Source: Chitinophagaceae bacterium
GTDB lineage: Bacteria; Bacteroidota; Bacteroidia; Chitinophagales; Chitinophagaceae
Reading direction: 5' to 3'
Length of the DNA: 64,000 bases
NCBI GenBank assembly: GCA_947446645.1
Contig: CANFHA010000015.1
Location: 62,001-126,000, forward strand
Both the position numbers and the translations under genes were made by a program. Below are positions 40,398-58,100 of this stretch, in pieces. The notes beneath the pieces are model-generated. The model saw only the letters and a list, made by a program, of their open reading frames with translations. It searched no databases and was not told where the DNA came from. Numbering within the stretch: the stretch's first letter is position 1; the number at the start of each line of letters is the position of its first letter.

Positions 40398-41279
40398 CTA
40401 TTGAACAGCCGTTTTTACGGTAGTGCAGGCTATACCATTGCTCAACCTTATAAGGTACATGCCGGACGCAAGGTTAAGTCCCGAGATCATATGTGTTGAC
40501 TTGCTGTTTTCCAACATTATATCCTCGCTGTAAAGCTGCCGGCCCACAAGATCATATAGGCCCAGTTTTGCAGGACCCGGTACATCCGACGTGCAGGATA
40601 AGGTAATAGATGATGACGTACTCATACCAACAACATTAACCAGAAGTTTTTCCTTGCCAGGACCTGATAGCTGTGTAGGAAATGTAGTAGTAAACACATT
40701 ATCTATAAACCACGTGCTACCTGTGCTTGCAGTAGATGTGTACCTGAACGCTACATACAACGGTACTGTGTTTTTATAAGGTGTGAGATCTGCACTATGC
40801 GTTACCCACTCGGTGGAATCATCATTGCCAAACGTGGGGCTGATGAAACTGGTGCGATCAGAATAGGTTGTTCCTCCAACCGTGTCAAACTTCGACGAGT
40901 CGGAAGTAACAACAAAAGCCATACGGGCGCCCAGGTTTATGTTGGACACTTTGGTGTCGAAATGGATAAAAATAGAACCCCCATAACCAGAAAGGTCGAG
41001 GCCTCGCGTTATGAGATAAGCAGTATCAGCATGATAAGCGGCAGGTGTTCCCCAAACTCCTGTGCATTTTATACCCGATGTGCCGTACCTGCCATTTACA
41101 GGCGCGCAGGTCCATGCGCCATCAGGCACAGTTGATGGGATGGTATTATACGATATCCAATCCATGGGAAAACCTGCGATTCCGCTGCAAACAGTGTTAA
41201 AGTCTTCAGCCACATTGGTCTGGGCATTGGCGCATAGCGCACCGGTAATAAGTAAAAGGGAAGTAAGAATTTTTTTCAT
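40398..41279 (-). CDS. Choice-of-anchor J-like T9SS type A cargo
   Basis: 293 residues: signal peptide MKKILTSLLLITGALCANAQ, then a beta-sandwich region with VAEDFNTVCSG (choice-of-anchor J start), DTAYLITRGLDLSGYGG, FIHFDTKVSN, YVAFRYTSTASTGSTWFIDN, and a short type A sorting domain LGLYDLVGRQLYSEDI, GMYLIRLSNG. The family is carbohydrate-binding-like and works as an accessory domain. As the whole mature protein is only this domain plus the tag, it may be a binding or structural surface protein. Convergent with the channel-like gene. Confidence 0.88.
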   Translation of the reverse strand: MKKILTSLLLITGALCANAQTNVAEDFNTVCSGIAGFPMDWISYNTIPSTVPDGAWTCAPVNGRYGTSGIKCTGVWGTPAAYHADTAYLITRGLDLSGYGGSIFIHFDTKVSNINLGARMAFVVTSDSSKFDTVGGTTYSDRTSFISPTFGNDDSTEWVTHSADLTPYKNTVPLYVAFRYTSTASTGSTWFIDNVFTTTFPTQLSGPGKEKLLVNVVGMSTSSSITLSCTSDVPGPAKLGLYDLVGRQLYSEDIMLENSKSTHMISGLNLASGMYLIRLSNGIACTTVKTAVQ

Positions 41280-41629
41280 CTGAATGTCTCTTTTTTTGTA
41301 CCCGCTAAATATGCCTTCAAATATTTATAGCGCACCTCGAAATTCGCTCAAAAATAGCCAACCCTAATCGCCCATCGTCACGTAAATATCAATATTTAAT
41401 ATAAACCAACCACTCCGTACTTGCCAATCCCAGCTACACATTAACTTATATCTAAATTCATGAATTCTCAAGCCTGGTTGCACTATTGTAATGACGACGA
41501 ATGAAGGGTAAATGTTAGTAACTTAGGAAAATATTTATCAGATTCCTCACATTTCTGCCATAAACCTCGTCAATTAACCACAAGCGATGGTTTATCTACA
41601 GAAATGTAGATTAAATATATAAATAAACA
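41280..41629. other. Divergent promoter spacer (350 bp)
   Basis: An A/T-rich spacer between the divergent T9SS cargo and sigma factor genes. Contains no gene that I can see. It probably holds both promoters and any site autoregulated by the ECF factor, but no clear TAnnTTTG box stands out near either start. Confidence 0.5.
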
Positions 41630-42217
41630 TTGGCAGAAGTCCTGAATATAAGCAGTAAAATTTCCGTGGTGGAAAAGAATTTTACCAGTCATAATGACCT
41701 AAGCATTCTGATACGGGATTGTATTGCCAAATCACCAAGCGCTCAGAAAAAGCTATATGACCTGTTTGCGCCAGCCGCATACGGTGTCATAAAGCGGTAT
41801 TTGTACCATGACGAGTTTGCCGCGCAGGAAGTATTGAATGACTCATTTTACAAAATACTCACCAAGCTGGACCAGTATTCTTTCCAGGGGGCTTTTGAAG
41901 GGTGGATCAGAAAAATTGTAGTAAACACGGTTACCGATCATCTGAGAAAAAACATAAAGGAAGGACAAACCAGCAAAGAAGTTCAGGAAGATGATGCCTG
42001 CGTAGGGAGCGACTCTGTGGAAAAACTATCGCACAAAGAACTGCTGAATATTATACAAACTATACCGGATGCTCAACGGGTGGTTTTTAACCTGTACGTG
42101 TTCGAAAATTATTCGCATAAAGAAATAGCAGCACTGTTGAACCTGACAGAGAGTAACAGCAGATGGTATCTGAACGATGCCAGGAGGAGACTGAAAGAAA
42201 AAATAAACTTGTACTGA
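41630..42217 (+). CDS. ECF-type RNA polymerase sigma factor
   Basis: 195 residues. Region 2: AQKKLYDLFAPAAYGVIKRY, NDSFYKILTKLDQYSFQGAF, EGWIRKIVVNTVTDHLRK (sigma 2.3/2.4 helix with the WIRKI motif). Region 4: IIQTIPDAQRVVFNLYVFENYSHKEIAALL followed by NLTESNSRWYLNDARRRL, the HTH that reads the -35 element. No ATG fits; the start is TTG 41630 or a GTG at codon 12, both without strong ribosome binding site. Such sigmas in Bacteroidota act with anti-sigma proteins in the inner membrane. The next gene starts 14 bp downstream and carries an anti-sigma-like N-terminus, so they form one unit. Confidence 0.92.
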   Translation: MAEVLNISSKISVVEKNFTSHNDLSILIRDCIAKSPSAQKKLYDLFAPAAYGVIKRYLYHDEFAAQEVLNDSFYKILTKLDQYSFQGAFEGWIRKIVVNTVTDHLRKNIKEGQTSKEVQEDDACVGSDSVEKLSHKELLNIIQTIPDAQRVVFNLYVFENYSHKEIAALLNLTESNSRWYLNDARRRLKEKINLY

Positions 42218-42231
42218 CGTAATTGAAAAAG

Positions 42232-45200
42232 ATGGAACAGAATTTTAACGACATTGATCACCTTTTCAAAGAAGAGCTCGGTGGCTACACCGAGACTCCG
42301 CCTCCCGCGGTATGGGATGCGCTTGAGAAAAGACTAAAAGGCGAAGACAAGCGCCGAATATTCCCGTATCGCTGGTGGTGGTATGTGAGTATCGTATCCT
42401 TTATTGTATTGCTTGGCTCTTCCGTTGCCTGGAAAATGTCTCGTGATGCAGCGCATAAAACAAACATGGCCAGCCTGGCAGCCGCTATACCGCAGCAGAC
42501 TGCTACAGCCAACAGCCCAGAAACAGCAAAAAAACAGGACGCAAACGGGGACGTAACCAATAATAAATCTAAGGCCGGTAAGAAGGACCATACTGCCTAT
42601 ACTACTACTGAAAACAATGTAACTAAAGAAATCAATCAGGAAGACAGAACAGCAGTAAACCATAGAAGGCACAAAAGGCACCAGCAAAAACATATTGGCT
42701 CACCTGTGAAAACCTTTACGCACGAGGATCTGTATGCCGACACTGACGACGACCAGTACACCGTAGGCGGCCATAGAAACAATGTGAAATATGAACATAG
42801 CGAGCCAAGGCCGGAATATATAACAGAACCAAGAACGCAGCACAACATAAGAGTAGCAGAAACTGACCCAACACAAAAGGCAGGAGAAAGTAATTACGGT
42901 AGCTATACTGCGGTATCAGCTTCAAAATTGAAAACAACCACAGGAAGCCATCTTGATATAGATCTTTCTGATGACGCTGAGCCTAAAACAAAAAATAGCA
43001 GCTCCGCAAGATCAGCCGCCCGCACTAAACCAGGTAAAGAGATCCTGTATGCCAGCACATCGCGCCATCTAGTAACACACGCAAAACCACCGCACAAGGC
43101 CGCTCCGTCTTCCCCAGAGATGTCTGCTTCTATGCCTGTTACAAATGCAAGTGTAAAAAAACATAGTCTGGCTGGCAGAAAGAAATCGCTGAAGACTGAA
43201 ATAAGGCAAACTAAACCCGAAGTATCGGTTGCAAAAAAGACTTCTTCACACAAGCCCACAACTAATGCTACAGCTACGACAAAAATTGCAGCTGTAACTG
43301 AGCCTGCTGCTGCACCGATCGTAAAAGAAGAGAAGCTGCCAAACGTTGCTAAAACAGAAAGCAAAGTTGCATCGAAAGAAACCCCAGCAGCGAGTACTAA
43401 TGTCAAAAAAGCAAGCTCAGACGAAGCAAAAGTTGTTACCGTACAAAAGAATGAACGTACTGCAACGACCGCCGCCCCTACTAAGACCCAGGCGCTGAAA
43501 ACAGCTACAAAGAGCGCGACAGCAGATATTACGTCTGCCGCCTCAACTTCGACTACAGGCAGCACTGCAATGCAGGGTACTCACAGCCCTACATCTAAAA
43601 CTAAAAACAGCACAGAGCAGACGACCACAAACTCTGTACCAGTAAAGACAACAGAGAAGATTGCACTGGTTGCTTTAGCTAGTGCTCCTGCAAATAAAGA
43701 CAAACACATAACCGCGAAAGCGAAACGAGTACATGCTCCTAAAACACATAGCGTTGTTTCAACACCGACATTGCCAGGCAACTCACCGACACCCACAAAT
43801 GCGTCGCCTTCATCGGTAGCAACGAGCAAATCCAAATCTGAATCAAAGAAGGGCAAAGAGCTCAAGGACGATAAGATACGCCCGGTTGTGAATAGCAATA
43901 TTGCGGCAACCACTACCAAGCATTCTGCCATTAAGACGCAATTTGGCAGTAGTAAATCAGCCACCGCACCGAAACCGGATAAAACCAATAACGTCGTTGC
44001 ACAAGATGAGCATGAAGTTGCAGCAAGCGCTACCACAGGCAGCCTGAAAGAACATGGTGATCACAAAAAGAAAAACAGGCGGACCAAAGATCCTGGCACT
44101 GCACCTGCCCAACCAGCAAAAATATTAGCAGTATCAAAGTCTGGTAACTCACGCACTGAGATTGCAGAAAATCAAGCTGTATCTAAAGTGCCTGCGAATG
44201 AGCATAGTAAAGACACCAACAGCATTAAAAATTCTAAGGCTGACGAAACAAGTACTGCCGCGAAAACACTTACAGGAAAAGAAAGCAGCAAATCTAAAAG
44301 TTCAAATTCCCGCAGCTCTAAAAACAGCGGAAATAAACACAACGAGCCGGCACCCCGGCAGCTATATGCTTACAGCAACAGCCTCCAGAAATTTGCGCTG
44401 GAAGACGAGACTGTACTTGTGGACAATCTGAAGGTGAACACATTTACGGACACAGCCCCCATTACAAGCAGCAACAGTGACGAACAGTTGATGGGAACAT
44501 TTAAGAATGATGCTAATACGGGAGATTCAAAAGTAAGCGCACCAGGTGCTGCCAACGATGACAGCACAACAAAACACCGCCGCTTTGCAGGTAAATTTGA
44601 GGCTGGTGTAAAAGGTGGTGTTGAAACAGCTTTCAACGGCTATGGCGCCAACAAGCTGGTGATTTCACCTTACCTGCAGTATAATCTCTCAGACAAGTTC
44701 TCCCTGCTGACACAACCTTCGTTTAAAGCATCTCATGTAAGCCGGCACGGTGCAGGACAGGATGCAACTTATAACGACCGGTCGCATGGCGTGTATACAC
44801 AAACCGATAGCGGTGCACTGTATACGGTTGTGTACGCAGGCAGTAATGCCGTAACTATAAGGAACACACTCAGAAAGTACAATTTCAGCTATGATTCCAT
44901 TGTAAAGTCTTACGCAACGGATTACACCTATATGGAAGTTGAACTGCCACTGCTGCTGAAGTATAAAATAGGTAAAGGTTTCTCGGTATATGGCGGAGCA
45001 AATAGTGTATGGAGCAAATATGCAAATCTGAAAGAGCATACCAATACCTACACAAGCACATACCACACACTCACCGTATTGCCAGCCAGCAGCCCTGCAA
45101 CACTGCCTGTTACCGCTAACCTGAACTTACCTGGTACGCCTATATCCAAGTATAACGGCCCACTTTATCCGGAACAAAAAGGAAGCCTGCTAAGGTTCGG

Positions 45201-45363
45201 ATACATGCTTGGCATCAGCTACGAATTCAAAAAGAAATGGATGGTAGATATGCTGGTGCAGCAGGCGATGGTGAAACCTCATAACGAAGCAGGAATTAAC
45301 ACGAACCAACCACTCTCACTGCCATATATCCGTTTCACACTTGGATATAAACTTAGTAAGTAA
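42232..45363 (+). CDS. Trans-envelope protein: anti-sigma-like N-terminus, TM, long linker, outer-membrane beta-barrel
   Basis: 1043 residues from ATG 42232. Residues 1-47 are cytosolic: FNDIDHLFKEELGGYTETPP with PPPAVWDALEKRL, a motif recurring at the head of sigma-linked membrane proteins in this phylum. Residues 48-67 (WWWYVSIVSFIVLLGSSVAW) form one TM helix. Residues ~70-780 are an extremely Ala/Thr/Lys/Ser-rich, almost surely disordered linker with repeated TTA, KTK, SKS words. Residues ~784-1043 look like a PorT-type outer-membrane barrel (FEAGVKGGVETAFNG, LVISPYLQYNLSDKFSLLTQ, MEVELPLLLKYKIGKGFSVY, LRFGYMLGISYEFKKKWMVD) ending in the aromatic strand YIRFTLGYKLSK. No signal peptide. It would join both membranes and pass a surface cue to the sigma factor 14 bp upstream. 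The role is inferred. Confidence 0.75.
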   Translation: MEQNFNDIDHLFKEELGGYTETPPPAVWDALEKRLKGEDKRRIFPYRWWWYVSIVSFIVLLGSSVAWKMSRDAAHKTNMASLAAAIPQQTATANSPETAKKQDANGDVTNNKSKAGKKDHTAYTTTENNVTKEINQEDRTAVNHRRHKRHQQKHIGSPVKTFTHEDLYADTDDDQYTVGGHRNNVKYEHSEPRPEYITEPRTQHNIRVAETDPTQKAGESNYGSYTAVSASKLKTTTGSHLDIDLSDDAEPKTKNSSSARSAARTKPGKEILYASTSRHLVTHAKPPHKAAPSSPEMSASMPVTNASVKKHSLAGRKKSLKTEIRQTKPEVSVAKKTSSHKPTTNATATTKIAAVTEPAAAPIVKEEKLPNVAKTESKVASKETPAASTNVKKASSDEAKVVTVQKNERTATTAAPTKTQALKTATKSATADITSAASTSTTGSTAMQGTHSPTSKTKNSTEQTTTNSVPVKTTEKIALVALASAPANKDKHITAKAKRVHAPKTHSVVSTPTLPGNSPTPTNASPSSVATSKSKSESKKGKELKDDKIRPVVNSNIAATTTKHSAIKTQFGSSKSATAPKPDKTNNVVAQDEHEVAASATTGSLKEHGDHKKKNRRTKDPGTAPAQPAKILAVSKSGNSRTEIAENQAVSKVPANEHSKDTNSIKNSKADETSTAAKTLTGKESSKSKSSNSRSSKNSGNKHNEPAPRQLYAYSNSLQKFALEDETVLVDNLKVNTFTDTAPITSSNSDEQLMGTFKNDANTGDSKVSAPGAANDDSTTKHRRFAGKFEAGVKGGVETAFNGYGANKLVISPYLQYNLSDKFSLLTQPSFKASHVSRHGAGQDATYNDRSHGVYTQTDSGALYTVVYAGSNAVTIRNTLRKYNFSYDSIVKSYATDYTYMEVELPLLLKYKIGKGFSVYGGANSVWSKYANLKEHTNTYTSTYHTLTVLPASSPATLPVTANLNLPGTPISKYNGPLYPEQKGSLLRFGYMLGISYEFKKKWMVDMLVQQAMVKPHNEAGINTNQPLSLPYIRFTLGYKLSK

Positions 45364-46020: not shown

Positions 46021-49000
46021 ATGAAAAATAAACTGATTTGTGGCCTGATAGCAACAATGCTATTACTCGCAGCTGGCACAGTGCAGGCCAGTACACTTTC
46101 GTATAACTTCAATAGCACATCGATACCAGCAGGAAAAAAGATCTGGTTTAGCGCCGTGGTAAGAGTAAATGGCACTGCTACTTACCCGCTGGTAATAAAT
46201 TTTACCAACCAAACCATAACAAGCTCGGCTTTCAACCTCTCCGTGCCAGACGGGCAGTTGATCATCGACGCTTCCGTAGCTACCGCTACAACAGTATTTA
46301 CTGGCGGTAAATGGGTAACAACTGCGCCACCAAGCACATCAGGCAACTACTTCATTTCCGGCTATTGCGACTCGCTCACCAACAGCATAGTCGGCGGACT
46401 GCACCCGGTATCATGGAATGGCACCTTTACGACCTGCAAAACCGGCATATCTATAAACTGGCAATGGGCTGCGGCAGTTTACAATTCGTTCCATTCCAAC
46501 ATGAACAATTTAGGTGTTAAGCCATCTGATTGCAGCCATTGCTCTGCATACAGCAATTCAGACAAAGCAGGAACACCCGAAAATTACAAATCATCAGTTA
46601 CAACGGTTGCTGGTGGCGGCAGCAGCACTTCAGGAAGCGGCGGCTGCGGGGGCGGATCAGGAGCAAGCAACGTAGGTACATATTCTGCTATCGGTACAGT
46701 AACACCGGCAGCCGGCAGCTACGCCGGCGCACTCTGCGCGGGCAGCACACTTTCAGAAACAGCCACAATAGCCGGAGGCTCGTGGAGCAGCGGTGTACCT
46801 GCTGTGGCAACCATTAATTCCTCTGGCGTAGTAAGCGCGCTGGCTGCAGGCACAACGAGGAGAACCTACACAGTTAACGGTTGCAGATCATGGGGAACAG
46901 TAACAGTGAATGCAGTTCCAGTTGTGAGTGCGACAACAACTACCAGTCTTCTCTGCGGTGGAAATACACTAAATCTTCAGTCAACCAGCAGCACTAGCGG
47001 AAGTGGTGGTAGTGGCGGCGGTTGTGGTGGAGGAAGCGGAAGTTCAGTTTCATACATATGGCGTGGCCCGGCTGGCTTTTACTCTGCTGCGCAAAATTGC
47101 AGCCGTAGCGGCATAACAACGGCCATGTCTGGAGTATACACAGTTATTGTTACCAGCAACGGCTGCAGTGCCAACGCTACAACAACTGCGGTTACGGTAA
47201 ACCAAATGCCATCTTCGATGGCGGTATCCGTAAGCCCAAATCCGGTATGTGCTGGTAACACAACACACCTTAATGCTACAGTTAGCGGTGGGTCAGGTTA
47301 TTCACTTTTGTGGAGAGGAGGCGTTAGCACAATCAGTAATAACACAACGACGAATGCTACGATAACATCAGTAACAATGGCCGATGCAGGCGTATATACC
47401 TTATCAGCAAGCGCTCCGGGATGTACAGGAAGTAACCGCACAACTGTAGCACTGGCAGTAAATGCAATACCAACATCAACCGGAGCTACAAACAGCGGCG
47501 CTACATGTACAGGCCTGGTAACGCTAAGCGCACATTCAAGCTCGGCTACCCGGTGGTCATGGGTAGGTTCTAACGGATTCACATCGAGCCTTCAGAACCC
47601 TTCAACAACTATTTCAGGCACAACTACGTTCTCAGTTACACTCAGCAATGCTACGACAGGCTGTAGCTCTGATGAAGTATACACTACTGTGGCTACCCTA
47701 GCAGGAACAGCTGACGCAGGCTCAATTTCCGGCGCAGCAGCTATGTGCACCGGAACCACAACAACGTTCAGCGGGTCGGTAACGGGCGGCATTTGGAGTT
47801 CAAATGCAGCAGCGGTGGCCAGTGTGAACGCGGCAGGTGAAGTAACAGGCGTTAGCGCCGGAATGGCAACTATTTCTTACGTAGTTACCAACGGCTGCGG
47901 CACAGCAATTACAACCCGCGATATCACAGTGAATGGGGTACCTGATGCAGGATCTATCAACGGCGGATCGGCTGCATGCGCCGGAACATCATTGTTGCTG
48001 AGCAATACAGTAAACGGTGGCGAATGGACTACCGATGCGCCGGCAATAGCGACTATAGACGCAGCCGGCAATGTATCGGCCAATGGCGCCGGCATAGCGC
48101 ATATCGCGTATACAGTGGCAAACAGCTGTGGCAGCTCATCCAGCAGTACTGCCATAAATGTAAATGCAGCACCTACACCAGGCAATATAGAGGGGCTTAC
48201 CGCCATCTGCCCGGGCACGAGCGCAAACCTTACAAATGCGGTGACCGGTGGCGCATGGACCACAGAACCTGTGGCCACAGCAACAATAGACGCAGCGGGT
48301 GTAATAACCGGCCTTGCAGCAGGCACCGCGATAGTATCCTATACTGCGGGCAATGAGTGTGGTTCGACAACAGCAACAGCTGTGGCAACTGTAAATGCAC
48401 TGCCTGAAGCCGGAACAATAACTGCGGCAGCTAATCTTTGCGCCGGCACATCCACTGCACTTAACAATACCGTTAGCGAAGGCGAATGGAGTACTGATGC
48501 GGCAGCAATTGCAACCGTAGATGCCTCAGGAAATGTAGCTGGCATAGGTGCCGGTATTGCAAATATTGTGTACCGGGTGTCTAACAGCTGCGGCATAGCC
48601 AGCGCCAGCTCGGTTGTAACAGTTACAGGGCTGCCTGATGCAGGCACTATAAGCGGCGCAGCATCCCTTTGCGCAGGTGCAACAACAACAATGTACAACA
48701 CAGCACCTGGCGGAGTATGGAGCACCAGCGGCACAGGTGCTGCTGCAGTTGATGCAACAGGAGTACTCACAGGAAACAATGGAGGCAGCGAAACTATCTC
48801 TTACGCGGTTTCAAACAACTGCGGCTCTGCAACCGCTACCCGTGTAATAATTGTAACATCAATGCCGGATGCCGGCACAATAAGCGGCAGCTCAGACATA
48901 TGCACAGGGACTAGCACCATGATGAACAACACTGCAAACGGCGGTGTATGGGCATCTGAGGCTTCGCCAATTGCAACTATAAATGCGACCGGCGTAATAA

Positions 49001-51174
49001 CCGGGGTAGCAGCAGGTGCTGCAACCATCCGATACACAGTGTCAAACAGTTGCGGCTCGGCAAGCACAACCACAATGATCAGCGTAAATACATTGCCTGT
49101 AGCCGGAACGATAACCGGAGCGGCACCAGTATGTGCCGGCAACTCAGTGACACTTGCAAACCTATTGAGCGGCGGCAGCTGGACTTCAGCTAACCCCGGA
49201 ATAGCGACTGTAAATAGCCTGGGAGTAGTAACCGGCGTAGCGGATGGAGATGCAACGATTTCTTATACCGTAGCAAATAGCTGTGGCACGGCCAGCGCAA
49301 CAGCACTAATACCTGTAACAGGGCTTCCAAATGCGGGAGCAATGGCAGGACCATCGCATGTAGGAGTAGACTCGATAATAGTACTTACTAATCCTACAGG
49401 CGATGCGGGTGGCACATGGACTGCAAACAACAGCTGTGTAATGATAGCAGGCGGGCTTATAAATGGCCTCGTACCCGGCACTGTTACTGTATCTTATACA
49501 GTAAGTAACAGCTGTGGCATAGCCAGAACCACCCGCGTAATAACCATTGACTCGCCTGTTTTCCGCATTTCTGATATCGCGGGGACTTCTTTCTTATCGT
49601 GTGTAGGCGGGCAGGCGGCATTCTGGAACAATACAACTGGTGGAATATTTACAATGAGCGATGCTGACGCCGCTGTAGCAACTGTTTCGCCGATAGGTGT
49701 TGTAACCGGTGTGAGTGCAGGAACAGCAACCCTAAGCTATACAGCATGGGGCGCTACCACTACCAGCATTGTTACTGTTTATCCTGTGCCTGCAGCCATC
49801 GCGGGACCGGCCAATGTTTGCAATGGTTCTACAAGCATGCTTACCAATGTAACTCCGGGTGGTGTCTGGACCAGCGGCATACCATCAACTGCAAGCATAA
49901 GCCCAGACGGAATTATTACCGGCAATAATGCAGGCACCGTAACTATGTACTACACCCTGGTTGCGCCTGCCGGCTGCAGATCATCAATAGTTGTAACTGT
50001 GAACCCTAACCCGATGGGCATTGTTGGCCCGGAGAGTGTATGCACTGGTGCAACTATAGCCCTTACTGATGCTACACCCGGTGGCACATGGAGCGGGTCT
50101 AACTCACATGCAAGTGTGGATGCTGCGGGTAATATTACCGGAATTTCAACAGGGGGAGTAAGTGTTTCTTATACCGGCCTTAATGGTTGCTTCAGGTATT
50201 ATGTAGTAAACATTACACAAGGCCCTACCGCTATCAATGGTAATCTGAATGCGTGTATCGGCACCTATACCTACCTTTCAGATGCTGTAACTCCCGGTGT
50301 TGGTTGGAGCAGCAGTAACCCTGCGGTTGCTACGATAACCGCGTCCGGCGCAGTAACGCCTATCACTGCAGGTACTACCAGGATCACCTATACGCTGAGC
50401 CCTGGCTGCCTGACTACTTCCGTAGTTACAGTAAATACTATCCCGGTCGTTTCGGCAATTCTTGGTGCTTCATCGGTATCCCGTACCGGCCCTGGAGTAA
50501 CATTGTCTGATCTTACGCCTGGTGGTATCTGGACCAGCAGCAACACGGCAATACTCACCGTGGGTTCTGCAACAGGGGTTGTTACCGCAAATGTATCTGC
50601 AGGCTCTGCCTACATCAACTATATCGTTACAAATGCCGCGGGTTGTGCCGGTTTTGCATATCGCATTCTCAGTGCCAGCCCTGCTCCCAGGAGCCACGGC
50701 GGCACCACTACTTCTCCAGGCTCATTAATAAACCTGAATAGCGAAATGTCTGCCGGAGAGTGGATAAGCAGCGACAACAGCGTAGCTACCGTAGACGAGA
50801 ATGGTATTGTAAACGCTATAGCTGAAGGCAGCACTGAGATAGCGCACACGGTTACAAATAGTGCCGGCGAAATAGCCACATCAGTAACTACGGTAACGGT
50901 TAAGGCTCAGCCACTGCAGGTGAGCATGGCACCAAATCCGAACAATGGAAGGTTTGTACTAAAGGGCACCACCGGTTCTGTTACAGATGCTGTCGTTAAC
51001 ATTGATGTTCTGAACATGGCCGGACAAGTAGTTTATACCACCCAAATCGTAGCTAACCGAGGTGTTATGAATGAGGCAGTTCAAACAGACAGCAGCCTTC
51101 CAAATGGCACATACATTATGAATGTTCGCAACGGGAACGAAACACAGATAGTACATTTTGTGATCGGGAAATAA
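46021..51174 (+). CDS. Giant Big2-repeat surface protein, T9SS type A cargo
   Basis: 1717 residues. Signal peptide MKNKLICGLIATMLLLAAGT ending VQAS, then a unique ~170-residue beta domain (STLSYNFNSTSIPAGKKIWF) with DCSHCSAYSNSD. Two Gly/Ser/Cys inserts (SGSGGCGGGSGAS at ~205; GGSGGGCGGGSGSS at ~335) flank the first Ig-like domains. About 14 Big2/Ig-like repeats of ~70 residues follow; most run GTISGAASLCAG - GGVWST - IATI..GVITGVAAG - ISYTVSNSCG, so each begins and ends with a Cys. The C-terminal ~80 residues are a type A sorting domain (MAPNPNNGRFVLKG, VLNMAGQVVYTTQI, NGTYIMNVRNG). Likely an outer-surface adhesin or stalk; shares its repeat type with the protein at 10666. Confidence 0.92.
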   Translation: MKNKLICGLIATMLLLAAGTVQASTLSYNFNSTSIPAGKKIWFSAVVRVNGTATYPLVINFTNQTITSSAFNLSVPDGQLIIDASVATATTVFTGGKWVTTAPPSTSGNYFISGYCDSLTNSIVGGLHPVSWNGTFTTCKTGISINWQWAAAVYNSFHSNMNNLGVKPSDCSHCSAYSNSDKAGTPENYKSSVTTVAGGGSSTSGSGGCGGGSGASNVGTYSAIGTVTPAAGSYAGALCAGSTLSETATIAGGSWSSGVPAVATINSSGVVSALAAGTTRRTYTVNGCRSWGTVTVNAVPVVSATTTTSLLCGGNTLNLQSTSSTSGSGGSGGGCGGGSGSSVSYIWRGPAGFYSAAQNCSRSGITTAMSGVYTVIVTSNGCSANATTTAVTVNQMPSSMAVSVSPNPVCAGNTTHLNATVSGGSGYSLLWRGGVSTISNNTTTNATITSVTMADAGVYTLSASAPGCTGSNRTTVALAVNAIPTSTGATNSGATCTGLVTLSAHSSSATRWSWVGSNGFTSSLQNPSTTISGTTTFSVTLSNATTGCSSDEVYTTVATLAGTADAGSISGAAAMCTGTTTTFSGSVTGGIWSSNAAAVASVNAAGEVTGVSAGMATISYVVTNGCGTAITTRDITVNGVPDAGSINGGSAACAGTSLLLSNTVNGGEWTTDAPAIATIDAAGNVSANGAGIAHIAYTVANSCGSSSSSTAINVNAAPTPGNIEGLTAICPGTSANLTNAVTGGAWTTEPVATATIDAAGVITGLAAGTAIVSYTAGNECGSTTATAVATVNALPEAGTITAAANLCAGTSTALNNTVSEGEWSTDAAAIATVDASGNVAGIGAGIANIVYRVSNSCGIASASSVVTVTGLPDAGTISGAASLCAGATTTMYNTAPGGVWSTSGTGAAAVDATGVLTGNNGGSETISYAVSNNCGSATATRVIIVTSMPDAGTISGSSDICTGTSTMMNNTANGGVWASEASPIATINATGVITGVAAGAATIRYTVSNSCGSASTTTMISVNTLPVAGTITGAAPVCAGNSVTLANLLSGGSWTSANPGIATVNSLGVVTGVADGDATISYTVANSCGTASATALIPVTGLPNAGAMAGPSHVGVDSIIVLTNPTGDAGGTWTANNSCVMIAGGLINGLVPGTVTVSYTVSNSCGIARTTRVITIDSPVFRISDIAGTSFLSCVGGQAAFWNNTTGGIFTMSDADAAVATVSPIGVVTGVSAGTATLSYTAWGATTTSIVTVYPVPAAIAGPANVCNGSTSMLTNVTPGGVWTSGIPSTASISPDGIITGNNAGTVTMYYTLVAPAGCRSSIVVTVNPNPMGIVGPESVCTGATIALTDATPGGTWSGSNSHASVDAAGNITGISTGGVSVSYTGLNGCFRYYVVNITQGPTAINGNLNACIGTYTYLSDAVTPGVGWSSSNPAVATITASGAVTPITAGTTRITYTLSPGCLTTSVVTVNTIPVVSAILGASSVSRTGPGVTLSDLTPGGIWTSSNTAILTVGSATGVVTANVSAGSAYINYIVTNAAGCAGFAYRILSASPAPRSHGGTTTSPGSLINLNSEMSAGEWISSDNSVATVDENGIVNAIAEGSTEIAHTVTNSAGEIATSVTTVTVKAQPLQVSMAPNPNNGRFVLKGTTGSVTDAVVNIDVLNMAGQVVYTTQIVANRGVMNEAVQTDSSLPNGTYIMNVRNGNETQIVHFVIGK

Positions 51175-51428: not shown

Positions 51429-52007
51429 ATGTTCGCATATTTAGAGGGTGTCCTTGTCTATAAATCCCCGTCTGTACTGAACATGGACGTACATGGCGTA
51501 GGCTATGAGCTACAGATCACTTTGCAGACCTTTGCCGTAATTCAGCCCCTTGAAAAGTGCCGGTTATACACGCACTTACAGGTGAGGGAAGATGCCTGGG
51601 TACTGTATGGCTTTGCCGACGAGGAAGAGCGTGCCACCTTCAGGCAGCTGCTGAATATAAGCGGGGTTGGTGCGGCCACTGCACGCATCATATTATCATC
51701 GCTCAACACTGGTGAGCTGGAACGTGCGGTAAATGGCCAGGACGCCAAAACGCTGGAACGTGTAAAGGGAATAGGCGCAAAAACAGCCCAGAGAATCATA
51801 TTAGAACTAAAAGGCAAGCTGCTGACGCAGAAAAATACATCATCGCAATCGCCTGTTATACACAATACAATGCAGGAAGATGCGTTAATAGCATTGGTGA
51901 ATTTAGGCATAAACCGGGGTGTTGCAGAAAATGCTATAAAGAAAATTGATAACGGTTCTTCGCTGACAGTAGAAGAACTGATCAAACAGGCACTCCGGGC
52001 ATTGTAA
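51429..52007 (+). CDS. ruvA: Holliday junction DNA helicase subunit RuvA
   Basis: 192 residues, standard size. OB domain MFAYLEGVLVYKSPSVLNMD, GYELQITLQTF, LQVREDAWVLYGFADEEERA; double helix-hairpin-helix ISGVGAATARIILSSLN and VKGIGAKTAQRIILELKGKL; domain III AVNLGINRGVAENAIKK-like tail (ALVNLGINRG) ending EELIKQALRAL. RuvA binds four-way junctions and recruits RuvB for branch migration. It is followed by sprA with a 101-bp gap, the gene order conserved in many Bacteroidota. Confidence 0.97.
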   Translation: MFAYLEGVLVYKSPSVLNMDVHGVGYELQITLQTFAVIQPLEKCRLYTHLQVREDAWVLYGFADEEERATFRQLLNISGVGAATARIILSSLNTGELERAVNGQDAKTLERVKGIGAKTAQRIILELKGKLLTQKNTSSQSPVIHNTMQEDALIALVNLGINRGVAENAIKKIDNGSSLTVEELIKQALRAL

Positions 52008-52108: not shown

Positions 52109-55100
52109 TTGAAGGGCAAGGGTAATTTAGGATACAGGTTTTTAGTTTTCATCGCACTGATGATAGCTATAGCAAATGCAGCCGCCAGGGGCTACCACCC
52201 TTTCTATGCCTTCTATGAGCCGACAGATAAAGATGACAGCACCGCAGACCGAAAGAAAGACAGTATCGAAAGAGCACTACAAGCCAAGAGAGACTCCCTC
52301 CACTTTCCGCTCCACGACCAGACCGGTGACCCGGTAACAGATTACAATCGCCCAAAAAGCATAGACCTGGCCGACCCTAAAAATCAAAGCCAGGGTTTTG
52401 ATTATGATGCCGATGGCAACCGGTACTACTTTTCTGAGCGCATGGGCAACGAATTTTTGCGCAATCCTACGTACCTCACCATGGATGAGTACCTGAAGTA
52501 CAGGGGCAAACAGGACCAGGATGCCTATTGGCAGCGCCGGCTTGATGCCCTTATGCTCTTCAACAAAACACCCGAGCTGCCACAGATGTATAAGGAAGGT
52601 CTGTTTGACCGCATTTTCGGCAGCAATACCATATCTGTAAAGCCCCAGGGCAATGTTGACGTAACCTTTGGCGGCAACTGGCAAAACATAAAGAATCCTA
52701 CGCTTACCCAGCGTGCGCAGAAATACGGCGTGTTCGACTTTGACATGCAGATGAACATCAACCTGCTGGCGCAGGTGGGCGACAAACTAAAGCTGAACAT
52801 CAGTAACAATACCAAAGCTACATTTGACTACCAGAATGTGCAGAAGCTGGACTATAGCGGCAAGGAAGATGAAATGCTTAAGAAGATAGAAGCCGGTAAC
52901 GTGAGCTTCCCTTTGAAAAGCAATCTTATCAGTGGTGTGCAATCGCTGTTTGGTCTCAAAACAAAATTGCAGTTTGGTAAGCTTTGGGTAACGGCCGTGA
53001 TCTCGCAGCAGAAATCGCAACGCAAGAGCCTGACCGTGCAGGGCGGTGCACAGTCGCAGCAGATAGCCATAAAGGCCGACAACTACGATGAGAATAAGGA
53101 CTTCCTGCTTGGCCAGTATTTCCGCGACAACTACAATAAGGCAATGGCTAACTTCCCGTTACTCAACTCGCAGGTCACCATCAGCAAAGTAGAAATATGG
53201 GTTACTAACCGCACAGGTGCGGTAACAGGCGTGCGCGATGTGCTCGGCTTTATGGACCTTGGCGAGGGCACACCATACCTGCAGCAAATGAACAACCCTA
53301 ACAGCGGCATACGTGATGGGCTGCCGGACAACAGGGCCAACAGGCTGTATACACAATTGGTTCAAAGTCCTAATGGACGTTTGCAGCGCTCTGCTACCAA
53401 TGCCGCGGTAAATCTTGGCCTCACGCAGGGGCAGGATTTTGAACGTACCACAGCCCGCCAGCTTGCACCTACCGAGTTCACCTTCAACTCGCAGCTGGGT
53501 TATATAATGCTGAATACCCAGCTCAACTCGGATGATGTGCTGGGCGTAGCGTATCGTTATACCTATCGCGGTAAGGTGTACCAGGTGGGTGAGTTTGCTG
53601 AAGACCTTCCGCCGGATACGACTAACCCTAAAGTACTTTACCTGAAATTACTGAAAGGCACTGCGTCGCGCCCAACCTTGCCGGTGTGGAAGCTGATGAT
53701 GAAAAACATCTACTCACTCGGCGGTTTCGGCGTATCGCGTGAGAATTTCACTTTAAATATCCTGTACCAGGACCCGGGCGGTGGCGAGCGCAGGTATATG
53801 CCTGAGGGACATGATGCCGGTATCCCTTTCCTTACTTTGTTAAACCTGGACAGGCTGAATACCCAGGGCGAGCGCTCGCCGGACGGAGTGTTCGACTTTG
53901 TAGAAGGGCTGACCATAAACACACAGCAGGGCAAGATCATCTTCCCTGTGCTGGAGCCATTTGGTAAAGACCTGCTGCCCGCAGTTATAGACTCTACGAA
54001 AGGTATTACGCCAGACCCAATTCTGAGGCGCAAGTATATCTTCCAGGTGCTCTATGACTCTACAAAGACCGTTGCCATGCAATCGCAGTCTAACGACAGG
54101 TATATCATGCGTGGCTCCTACAAATCCTCGTCTTCGTCCGAAATATTTTTGGGCGGTTTCAATATACCGCAGGGCTCTGTATCGGTATCAGCCGGCGGCA
54201 CAAGGCTGGTAGAGAACCAGGACTATACTGTAGACTACGGCCTGGGCAGATTAAAAATTATCAATACCGGCATTCTTAATTCCGGCGTGCCTATAAACAT
54301 CCAGTATGAGGATAATGCAACCTTTGGCTTTCAGCAGCAGAATTTCATGGCTGCCCGACTGGACTACTATGTGAACAAAAACCTGACACTCGGTACTACA
54401 GTAATGAGGCTCAACGAGCGTCCGTTCACACAGCAGGTATCTTATGGCGATGATCCTATCAAGAATACGGTACTTGGTGCAGATGCGAACTACCAGACCG
54501 AATTCCCGGCCCTTACCCGGCTGCTTGACAAACTACCTATCTATTCCACTACTGCATCGTCTTTCGTAAACAGCAACCTGGAAGTTGCGGCCCTCCTTCC
54601 CGGCCACCCAAAGCAGATAGACGCGCTGGACCCCGAAGGATCTATATACATAGACAACTTTGAGGGTACCAGCAGCGCATACGATCTTAAGTTCCCGGCC
54701 CAGTCATGGTCGCTGGCCTCTACGCCCTTCGGTGCCATAGACAGGGCGGCGCACAGCCTTTTCCCTGAGGCTCAGCTGGATGACCAGCTGATAAACGGCG
54801 CGAACAGGGCCCGCCTGGCCTGGTACAATATAGAACCTACCCTGGTAGACCCGGGCTCCACGGCACCTGCCTATGTGAGCAAGGATCCTAACCAGCACTA
54901 TATAAGAATGATATCGCTGCAGGACGTATTCCCGAATCAGCAGTTCCCTGCACTGCAAAACGCCGCCAGTACATTCGACCTTGGTTATTATCCAAAAGAA
55001 AGAGGACCCTACAACTTTGATGTAAATCCATCAGTTTATACAGCAGGTGTAAATTCGGACGGTACACTCGCCGCACCCGAAACAAGGTGGGGCGGTATCA

Positions 55101-58100
55101 CACGCCCTATTGACAATACCGACTTTGAATCATCCAATGTAGAGTATATTCAGTTTTGGGTGATGGATCCCTTTATCAATAACCCTACAGCAGCAGGTGG
55201 CTCGCTGTATTTTAACCTGGGCAATGTATCTGAGGACATCCTTAAGGACTCAAGGATGTTCTTTGAAAATGGAATCCCTTCGCCTTTTGATGGAACCAAA
55301 CTCGACACCACGGCATGGGGCTATCTGCCGAAATTCGAGCAACAAATAACACGCGCATTCGACAACGATAACACAGCCCGTACGCTGCAGGATGTAGGAT
55401 ACGATGGTCTACCGGACACGTCTTCGATACCAGGCCAGCTTACGGAACAAAAGAAATTTGAAAACTTCCTTACACAGCTTCGCCAAAAAATAGGCGCCGC
55501 AAACCCGGCATACCAGCAGGCATTGAGTGATCCGTCTAACGATGACTACCACTATTTCCGTGGTTCAGATTTTGACACGGTAAACAACGGAATAGGGCTT
55601 GGGGTACTTGCGCGCTACAAGCGCTACAACAGCCCACAGGGCAACTCACCTATTACCGACCCAAAATCTTCTTACGCCACCTCATCTACAACGATTCCGG
55701 AATCGGAAGATATTAACCGGGACAACACGCTGAATGAAGGCGAGAGCTACTTCCAGTATCGTATTGATATGACGCCAAACATGCAGGTTGGCCAGAACAA
55801 TATCATCAACATTCAGCCCAGCCTGGTAAAATTGCCTAACGGTAACACGGAAGAAGAAAAATGGTACCAGTTTAAAATACCTATTGAGAGCTATGATCAC
55901 AAAGTTGGCGGCATCGGCGACTTCCGTTCCATCCGCTTCCTCCGCATGTTCATGGCCGGCTGGAGAGATAGCGCAATCCTTCGGTTTGCCACGCTGGAGC
56001 TGGGCCGCAACCAATGGCGCAACTATAAATACTCGCTGCAGACACCGGGCGAAGAGTCTCCACAACAAAACCAGGGCCTTACTGACTTCACCGTCACATC
56101 TGTCAGCATTGAGGAAAACGGATCACGGTCACCAATACCGTATGTAATACCTCCGGGAGTGAACCGCCAGCTGTCTACTGTGGCACAGGGTTCCACTATC
56201 CAGCTAAATGAAAGAGCACTTTCCCTGAAAACCTGCGCACTGCAGGATGGAGATGCACGCGCCGTGTACAAAGAGGTGAATGTGGATATGCGCCAGTTCT
56301 CCTACCTGCGTATGTTTGTACACGCTGAGAGCGCAGTAGGTCAGCCGGTGGTAAGAAATGCTGATGTGGATGCCTTTATACGTATAGGCAGTGACTTCAC
56401 TAACAACTATTACGAATACCGTATGCCGCTGGCGGTAACCTCACCGGTTGCAGCTTCAGCAGCCTCTTCAGATCTCGTATGGCCTGCATCAAATGAAATG
56501 AACATAGTATTGCAGGACCTGGTAAACGCAAAAAAGAAACGCGACGAACTGGGCTGGCAAACATTTGTGCCTTACTATGACAAAGACTCCAAGGGCAACA
56601 TAATAGTTATTGTGGGCAACCCCAACATAGGTGGTGCAAAAAATATAATGCTGGGCCTGCTGAACCCTAAAAAAACAAACACTACCCAGGGCGATGACGG
56701 GCTGCCAAAATGCGTAGAAGTATGGTTTGATGAACTACGTATGGCTGGCATCAATGACCAGGCCGGCTATGCTGCGGCAGGTAAGGTTGCCGTTCAGTTG
56801 GCGGACTTTGGCAATGTAAATCTTTCCGGCAGCATGCATACTGCCGGGTATGGCAATATAGACCAGAAGATACAGCAGCGCTCTCAGGATCAGTACACCC
56901 AATACAACACTTCTACCAACCTGGCACTAGGTAAGCTGATGCCTAAGGATTGGGGCGTGCAGCTTCCGTTCTTTGCCGGCTACACACAAAGCGTAAGCAA
57001 CCCCAAATATGACCCCAATGATGCCGACGTACTGATAAGTGATGAGCTGAGCAAAGCACGGTCTGCCGCCGCACGCGACTCCATAAAGAACGCGACACAG
57101 GATTTTACATCTATTAAAAGCTTCAACTTCACGAACGTAAAGATCACCGGAAACAGCACAGCTACTGCCAAGCCCCGTAAGATCTGGAGCATAAAGAACT
57201 TTGATTTCAGCTATTCGTACAACGACCAGAAGAAACACAACCCAACTGTAACAATGGACGAATTGAAGACGCAGAAATATGGCCTGGGTTATACCTACGC
57301 CATCAAATCAAAACCAATTGAGCCTTTTAAAAAGTACATCCGGTCAAAATCCAAATGGTTTTCATTGGTGAAAGACTTCAATTTTAATCCGCTTCCGTCC
57401 AGCCTGTCTATGCGCAATGACCTTACGCGTATAAATGAGAAAACACAGGTGCGGAATATAAACGACGGCAGCGACTACCAGATACAGCCCACGTTCTACA
57501 AAATCTTCAACTGGAACCGCGTCTACAACCTGCGCTGGGAGCTTGCTAAATCCCTTTCTTTCGACTATTCGGCTACTAATATCTCGCGTATTGATGAGCC
57601 TTATGGGGAAGTGAATACAAAGGCCAAAAAGGACTCTCTTTGGAACAGGGTAAAGACGTTTGGTCACAATACTTCCTATGCGCAAACTTTCAACAGTACC
57701 TACAATGTGCCACTGGCAAAGCTGCCGGCCACGGACTGGATAACCGTTCGCCTTGGTTATGCAGCAAACTACTCATGGACCGGAGCCGCGCCGGTAGCTT
57801 ACGATCTTGGCAATACCATTGGCAATACACAAACCAAAACACTGACAGGAGAACTGAACCTAACCCAGCTTTACAATAAATCAAGGTATCTCAAAGCGCT
57901 GAATGCTAAGCCCGGGCCAAAACCTGGTGAAAAGCCCGTTGAAAAGAACGGCCCTGCAGGCCCTTCCGGTGACAATGGTAAAAACCTGAAAGACCTCCGT
58001 CAGTCAAAAACAGGCGGTGGCAAGGGCGGGCAACAAGACCCGGTCAATGGCACCGAGGATAATAATAGCGGCAGCACTGGCACTGGCAATACCAGCGGTG

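What the first reader, a model, noticed from the sequence alone, without database searches (positions are those of the whole stretch)
41630..45363. ECF sigma factor coupled to a single protein that may link cytosol and outer membrane
Directly downstream of the sigma gene is one protein with a cytosolic head containing a PPPAVWDALEKRL motif, one TM helix, a ~700-residue Ala/Thr/Lys/Ser-rich linker and a C-terminal PorT-like outer-membrane barrel. There is no signal peptide; the TM acts as anchor. In the classical FecI/FecR/FecA scheme these parts are three proteins. Here surface state could be passed to the sigma factor through a periplasm-spanning tether. The linker is long enough to cross the periplasm, and its length could itself report on periplasm width or barrel insertion.
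Basis: partly seen in the sequence, partly recalled or inferred. Interest (0 to 1): 0.8.

Follow-up and report, generated by a model that had tools for sequence, protein, structure and literature searches.

The report
Two-membrane anti-sigma factor controlling surface proteins
A single bacterial protein probably reaches from the outer membrane through the cell envelope to hold back a gene-switching factor inside the cell; this design was already known from gut bacteria, but here it appears to govern proteins that the cell displays on its surface.

Summary
An ECF sigma gene (41630-42217) is followed by a 1043-residue protein (42232-45363): a 51-residue cytosolic head, one TM helix, a 714-residue tether of disordered composition and a confidently predicted outer-membrane barrel (pLDDT 93.3).

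The idea is not new: this is the published layout of the Bacteroidota "dual membrane-spanning anti-sigma" (Dma) family (PMC13088901, PMC9308784). The pair is conserved: 77 of 77 sigma relatives with room have a head gene next, and 113 of 114 further head ORFs lie beside a sigma gene. Tether length runs from 162 to 718 residues among relatives with the same divergent partner, which argues against a periplasm ruler.

What I did not find in print is the circuit. A motif, CTAACATTT-N13-CGTC, precedes the sigma gene, and its mirror image faces a divergent gene for a T9SS-type surface protein. Exact copies: 51 in 12 genomes with near relatives of this sigma, 0 in 12 whose nearest sigma is at most 40% identical. 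Of 34 secreted-type proteins downstream of sites, 29 have T9SS tails, against 6 of 96 neighbours.

Verdict: a Dma-type pair probably governing T9SS cargo; a new variant of a known kind.

The parts
40398..41279 (-). Divergent partner gene: 293-aa choice-of-anchor-J protein with signal-peptide-like start and weak T9SS sorting tail
   Evidence: NF038128 38.3 bits over cut-off 30; TIGR04183 19.5 bits under cut-off 23. Relatives upstream of sigma in 30 of 66 loci with at least 1100 nt there, 29 divergent
41493..41518 (-). Mirror-image promoter site CTAACATTT-N13-CGTC, exact, facing the divergent gene
41546..41571 (+). Forward promoter site (CTcACATTT, one mismatch), 58 nt before the sigma start codon
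41630..42217 (+). ECF sigma factor, 195 aa, TTG start
   Evidence: Pfam Sigma70_r2/r4_2, TIGR02937
42232..45363 (+). Dma-type anti-sigma protein, 1043 aa
42232..42384 (+). Cytosolic head, residues 1-51, with the PPPAVW motif; predicted sigma-binding part
   Evidence: Conserved profile A2; 113 of 114 head ORFs beside a sigma gene; model
42385..42441 (+). Transmembrane helix, residues 52-70
   Evidence: Hydropathy
42442..44583 (+). Tether of disordered composition, residues 71-784, rich in Ala/Thr/Ser/Lys
44584..45360 (+). C-terminal outer-membrane-type beta-barrel, residues 785-1043
   Evidence: AF2 pLDDT 93.3; OprF/PagL/OmpA matches

Best explanation
This is a sigma/anti-sigma pair of the Dma type that controls a set of T9SS-exported surface proteins. 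At rest the two-helix head clamps the ECF sigma factor at the inner membrane; the TM helix anchors it; the long disordered tether crosses the periplasm; the C-terminal barrel sits in the outer membrane as the sensing part. A change at the barrel (ligand, surface partner, or failed assembly or damage of the outer membrane) is passed through the tether and frees the sigma factor, probably by proteolysis. The free sigma factor then reads promoters of the form CTAACATTT-N13-CGTC: its own operon, the divergent surface protein 40398-41279, and a scattered regulon rich in T9SS cargo. Shown by computation: gene pairing, anatomy, barrel fold, the motif and its link to T9SS cargo. Inferred: that the motif is this sigma factor's promoter, that the head inhibits the sigma factor, membrane placement, direction of signalling, the signal and the release step.
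Against: No experiment touches this organism. In the window's own genome the motif is not enriched by count: 11 sites with at most 1 mismatch against 9 for the reversed control, 34 against 54 for the TCGTC form with at most 2; one of its four exact sites (C6:196685) precedes no gene. The forward site in the window has one mismatch. The 34 targets include orthologs and paralogs (8 are the divergent partner), mix exact sites in relatives with 1-mismatch sites in the own genome, and the tail threshold is E 0.001, not the curated cut-off. The sigma-head model came from a chain read through a stop codon, with 24 paired rows, no pair-confidence output and no sigma-alone control; the sigma linker (blocks of 67) and the start of the head (72) are weak. 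Homology to the Bacteroides Dma1/Dma2 sequences was not tested. In 33 of 106 pairs from other genomes the head protein is under 300 aa, too short for this barrel.
Confidence: 0.76

Rival explanations
1. The barrel reports outer-membrane assembly or damage, not a ligand or surface partner. When the barrel cannot fold or the membrane is hurt, the tether is cut and the sigma factor is freed; the T9SS cargo is then a coat-repair response.
For: In P. vulgatus a pair of the same layout is induced by the toxin BcpT, and overlapping genes by bacteroidetocin A, which inhibits BamA (PMC9308784, passages). The tether is disordered and open to proteases. The layout needs no ligand.
Against: The predicted targets are T9SS cargo, not assembly or repair factors. 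A conserved divergent surface protein suggests a more specific input.
Confidence: 0.35
2. The protein is cut after synthesis: the head half stays as an ordinary inner-membrane anti-sigma factor, the barrel half is an independent outer-membrane protein, and no continuous link carries a signal.
For: The same head works, to judge by its gene pairing, on proteins too short for a barrel (33 of 106), and near relatives L045 and L056 have a tail but no barrel. The tether is fast-evolving, 29-36% identical in four near orthologs.
Against: Head and barrel stay in one frame in 65 of 67 complete proteins of 340 aa or more, across tethers of 117 to 718 residues. A mere pair of proteins could have split into two genes; no conserved cleavage site was looked for.
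Confidence: 0.15
3. The tether is a ruler: its length measures periplasm width or barrel insertion.
For: Lengths are similar (624-714) in the five nearest complete relatives plus the window. Long tethers cluster on the sigma tree, 4 changes against 17.7 in shuffles.
Against: 162 to 718 residues among relatives with the same divergent partner; even 162 residues, fully extended, would exceed a periplasm (my estimate of about 0.36 nm per residue, no call).
Confidence: 0.05
4. The motif belongs to another regulator that is inherited together with this sigma group, so the T9SS genes are neighbours in a network but not targets of this sigma factor.
For: No transcript data; own-genome count not above control.
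Against: The site lies at a near-fixed 49-64 nt before the sigma gene in the window-type loci, looks like an ECF promoter (AAC and CGTC; recalled), and tracks the sigma group: 51 sites in 12 genomes with it, 0 in 12 without. The paralogous sigma clade has a matching one-base change.
Confidence: 0.12

Closest known systems
Dma1/Das1 and Dma2/Das2 of Bacteroides thetaiotaomicron (PMC13088901; the 2024 PNAS paper is not held, seen only as a reference entry)
   Same: Same four parts in the same order (N-terminal anti-sigma domain, TM helix, long disordered tether, C-terminal barrel), next to an ECF sigma gene
   Different: Here the predicted regulon is T9SS cargo rather than NigD, PULs and vesicle traits; there is a mirror-image promoter with a divergent T9SS protein. 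Tether lengths of the Bacteroides proteins were not seen.
P. vulgatus M0N98_03760/03761 and the similar B. fragilis pair (EcfO) cited there (PMC9308784, passages)
   Same: Sigma gene followed by a large anti-sigma predicted to span the periplasm, with a C-terminal outer-membrane barrel
   Different: Induced by envelope-acting toxins and linked to O-antigen length; other targets
PorA-PorXY-SigP of Porphyromonas gingivalis (PMC7712824, abstract and first part of the discussion)
   Same: A T9SS-tail protein at the surface is proposed to feed an ECF sigma factor that serves T9SS genes; a parallel for the divergent protein here
   Different: Works through a two-component system, and its targets are T9SS machinery rather than cargo
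CnrH-CnrY, a class II two-helix anti-sigma factor (PMC7406223, passages; PDB 4cxf)
   Different: No sequence relation tested; CnrY has no tether and barrel (recalled)
FecI/FecR/FecA
   Same: Surface signal passed to an ECF sigma factor
   Different: Three proteins with a TonB-dependent receptor (recalled); the sigma here misses the TIGR02985 cut-off

Membership tests
Dma (dual membrane-spanning anti-sigma) family | N-terminal anti-sigma domain | tested here: inconclusive
   Conserved head beside a sigma gene and a supportive model; no binding data; no curated model reaches its cut-off on the head
Dma family | Single transmembrane helix after the head | tested here: met
   Hydropathy peak at residues 52-70; K+R excess on the head side in 43 of 63 proteins
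Dma family | Long intrinsically disordered tether | tested here: met
   714 residues, charge-hydropathy on the disordered side, 29-36% identity in four near orthologs
Dma family | C-terminal beta-barrel | tested here: met
   AF2 pLDDT 93.3; OprF/PagL/OmpA-type matches
Dma family | Adjacent cognate sigma factor of the ECF21 family | tested here: inconclusive
   An ECF sigma gene is adjacent; no ECF21 model was at hand
Dma family | Sequence homology to Dma1/Dma2 of B. thetaiotaomicron | not tested
   Their sequences were not obtained. The Bacteroidales relatives L078 and L079 have the head, and L078 a weak PF13568 match, 21.3 bits against 27
Dma family | Deletion frees the cognate sigma factor | not testable with these tools
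   Needs a mutant
FecI/FecR-type system | Sigma factor of TIGR02985 and a FecR-domain partner | tested here: not met
   75.7 bits against a cut-off of 126.4; no FecR match in the partner at E up to 1
PF13568 OMP_b-brl_2 | Score over the gathering cut-off | tested here: not met
   17.5 against 27 bits for the window protein; the distant relative L112 passes with 31.1

The most novel reading that the evidence does not exclude
The module is a closed surface-to-cytosol loop for the type IX secretion system. The divergent T9SS-exported protein, made from the mirror promoter, docks on the Dma barrel from outside once it has been exported. The barrel thereby reads whether surface display is working, and the tether sets the expression of the wider T9SS cargo, so that a two-membrane anti-sigma factor gauges the cell's own exported coat.
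Probability: 0.22. Interest if true: 0.75.

Novelty: new variant of a known kind. Interest (0 to 1): 0.52.

Why it matters
How a signal crosses the outer membrane and the periplasm to reach a sigma factor in one polypeptide is open even for the published Dma proteins, whose inputs are unknown (PMC13088901 discussion). Here the genome names a candidate input (the divergent surface protein), a promoter motif and a regulon in environmental bacteria, so the circuit can be tested directly. It also points to how T9SS cargo genes may be regulated outside the PorXY-SigP pathway, and to a short anti-sigma head that may help explain why only 6% of Bacteroidetes ECF sigma factors have a class I anti-sigma domain nearby (PMC7406223, passages).

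Tried and rejected
Ruler idea: rejected on tether length variation. FecI/FecR filing: rejected. Curated families for the head: none over a cut-off in the window protein or in ten relatives; sub-threshold hits to anti-sigma models in L115 (NF052375, 16.2 bits, cut-off 100) and L081 (PRK13920, 13.3 bits, cut-off 225) are noted only. Natural sigma-head fusions (Dma3-like): none among 113 pairs. First paired alignment of sigma and head rows (A3): dropped because MAFFT laid heads over the sigma factor; replaced by A4. A crude signal-peptide score: not used as evidence of enrichment, because 261 of 405 background ORFs passed it; the T9SS-tail test took its place. Promoter count in the own genome: not enriched. 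Motif at the other head loci of the own genome: none at L199 or L201 and one 2-mismatch match at L200; the second full-length copy of the divergent protein (L320) has no site with up to 2 mismatches. Synteny with sprA and ruvA: no hit in loci L004-L082, which reach at most 6 kb past the sigma gene. Own-genome PF13568 matches: 23, three of them in head-protein loci. Foldseek on the barrel gave low TM-scores before the VIA second look. Rows dropped: L045 and L056 from A1 (no barrel), L161 from A4 (five stops between the genes), L009 and L042 from the promoter count (under 120 nt upstream); 2 of 51 promoter sites in relatives were not read downstream (both belong to the sigma locus of L007). Literature: one search found nothing; some searches were read as listings. 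Seen: PMC13088901 abstract, introduction, first results section, discussion, first part of the reference list and passages; PMC9308784, PMC7406223, PMC12045153, PMC11878027 and PMC13114119 passages; PMC7712824 abstract and first part of the discussion. No paper describing this T9SS-linked circuit appeared in those seven searches; the library lacks most subscription journals.

Full report
The observation. The two ORFs are as described. The sigma gene is 41630-42217. The second gene is best read from the ATG at 42232 and gives 1043 residues. Its parts, by hydropathy and by alignment with 66 other complete relatives of 340 aa or more, are: head 1-51, TM 52-70, tether 71-784, barrel 785-1043. The tether is A13 T13 S12 K12 percent.

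The pairing. A scan with the sigma factor kept 79 loci. In 77 the next gene is a head protein; the other two contigs end too soon. Five of the 77 (L070-L072, L077, L080) have a divergent head without the PP..W motif. A profile of the head matched in 111 of 392 Bacteroidota genomes at E 0.001 and four times in the own genome. I read loci of the better matches: of 114 head ORFs in L106-L218, 113 have a sigma gene beside them and one (L213) does not (the four own-genome copies are included, three of them twice). Outside the own genome these are 106 pairs: 33 proteins under 300 aa, too short for this barrel, 71 of 360 aa or more, and 2 cut by the locus end. So the head looks like a portable anti-sigma module, and the longer form is the commoner one.

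Comparison with print. [quoted passage not shown] the extra vesicles of the dma2 mutant need das2. PMC9308784 (passages) describes a P. vulgatus anti-sigma predicted to span the periplasm with an outer-membrane barrel.

The tether. Among relatives with the divergent partner it runs from 162 (L031) to 718 (L076) residues. Long tethers (450 or more) need 4 changes on the sigma tree, 3-4 in bootstraps, against 17.7 in shuffles; one origin is not ruled out. In four orthologs whose sigma factors are 84-88% identical to the window's, the tether is 29-36% identical and the barrel 64-68%. A tether kept by composition fits; a ruler does not.

The promoter. Aligned upstream regions show a block CTAACATTT-N12-TCGTC and its mirror image. 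In the window the mirror site 41493-41518 is exact and the forward site 41546-41571 has one mismatch. With at most one mismatch (A or G allowed at position 6) the forward site is in 61 of 72 loci of this group, the mirror in 30, both in 29; the forward site is in 1 of 114 other loci and in 0 of 3720 mononucleotide shuffles. Of the 72, 22 end in CGCC instead of CGTC (read off the list); they lack the mirror and the partner. The 19 of them in the tree form one clade, support 100/100, with short tethers. The two paralogous sigma factors thus seem kept apart by one base of the -10 element.

The partner. The mirror site faces a conserved divergent gene, 40398-41279 in the window: a choice-of-anchor-J protein with a weak T9SS tail. 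Relatives of it lie upstream of the sigma gene in 30 of 66 loci with at least 1100 nt there, 29 of them divergent. An alignment of eight is A6.

The regulon. In 12 genomes behind near relatives the exact pattern CTAACRTTT-N13-CGTC occurs 51 times, the reversed control 11 times. In 12 other genomes of the class it occurs 0 times, the control 11 times; their nearest sigma factors are at most 40% identical to the window's, against 66-87% in three carriers checked. I read 49 of the 51 sites: 9 precede the sigma gene itself; 27 precede an ORF of 200 aa or more with a hydrophobic start, at 23-192 nt; 5 have no ORF of 90 aa or more starting within 350 nt; the other 8 precede shorter ORFs, among them another ECF sigma gene in two genomes. 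Of the 11 own-genome sites with at most 1 mismatch, 7 precede such secreted-type proteins, 1 the sigma gene, 1 no gene and 2 short ORFs. These 34 proteins were scanned: 29 match TIGR04183 and 26 PF18962 at E 0.001, with Ig-like, NHL, PKD and SprB repeats in some. Of 96 neighbouring ORFs of 200 aa or more, 6 match TIGR04183 at the same threshold; Fisher p 4e-18, though the targets include orthologs and paralogs. In the own genome alone the site count is not above control.

Mechanism. Shown: pairing, parts, predicted fold, motif, link to T9SS cargo. Inferred: that the motif is read by this sigma factor, inhibition, placement, signal, release. The input may be the divergent T9SS protein, in the way that PorA is proposed to feed PorXY-SigP (PMC7712824), or outer-membrane damage, as with BcpT (PMC9308784).

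Verdict. Real, conserved and of a known architecture, with a regulatory circuit that I did not find described in the seven literature searches made.

Noticed in passing
window 52109-60028 (+), 51429-52007 (+), 46021-51174 (+): Downstream lie the T9SS translocon gene sprA/sov (TIGR04189, 2455.7 bits), ruvA and a 1717-aa Big_2-repeat protein with a T9SS tail. No promoter site precedes the Big_2 gene.
   Followed up: partly
L065 6581-8644 and L063 6533-8545: The head motif is repeated in tandem before the TM, three times in L065 and twice in L063; it might hold more than one sigma molecule.
   Followed up: no
L199 (G000:C8:106500-111500) and L057: The own genome's short-tether copy of the pair looks decayed: the sigma frame is disturbed, head and barrel lie in separate ORFs, no promoter site is left. 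L057 also has an in-frame stop in its sigma gene.
   Followed up: partly
22 short-tether loci, e.g. L026, L029, L034, L047, upstream of sigma: They carry CTAACATTT-N13-CGCC, one base away from the CGTC of the window type: paralogous sigma factors apparently kept apart by one base.
   Followed up: partly
L045 2247-3365 and L056 6599-7705: Near relatives with head, TM and a disordered tail ending in a basic stretch, but no barrel.
   Followed up: no
L296 and L315: In two genomes an exact promoter site lies 189 nt before another ECF sigma gene (192 aa), hinting at a sigma cascade.
   Followed up: no
G000:C12:144195 (L201) and G000:C3:67917 (L200): Two more distant head proteins (808 and 398 aa) beside sigma genes in the own genome.
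   Followed up: partly
window 41630 and relatives: The codon at the sigma start is TTG in 40 of 43 loci checked, suggesting that a weak start is kept by selection.
   Followed up: no
L287 and L234: A 154-158-aa protein without a family match in NCBIfam (L287) has the promoter site in a relative (exact) and in the own genome (1 mismatch).
   Followed up: no
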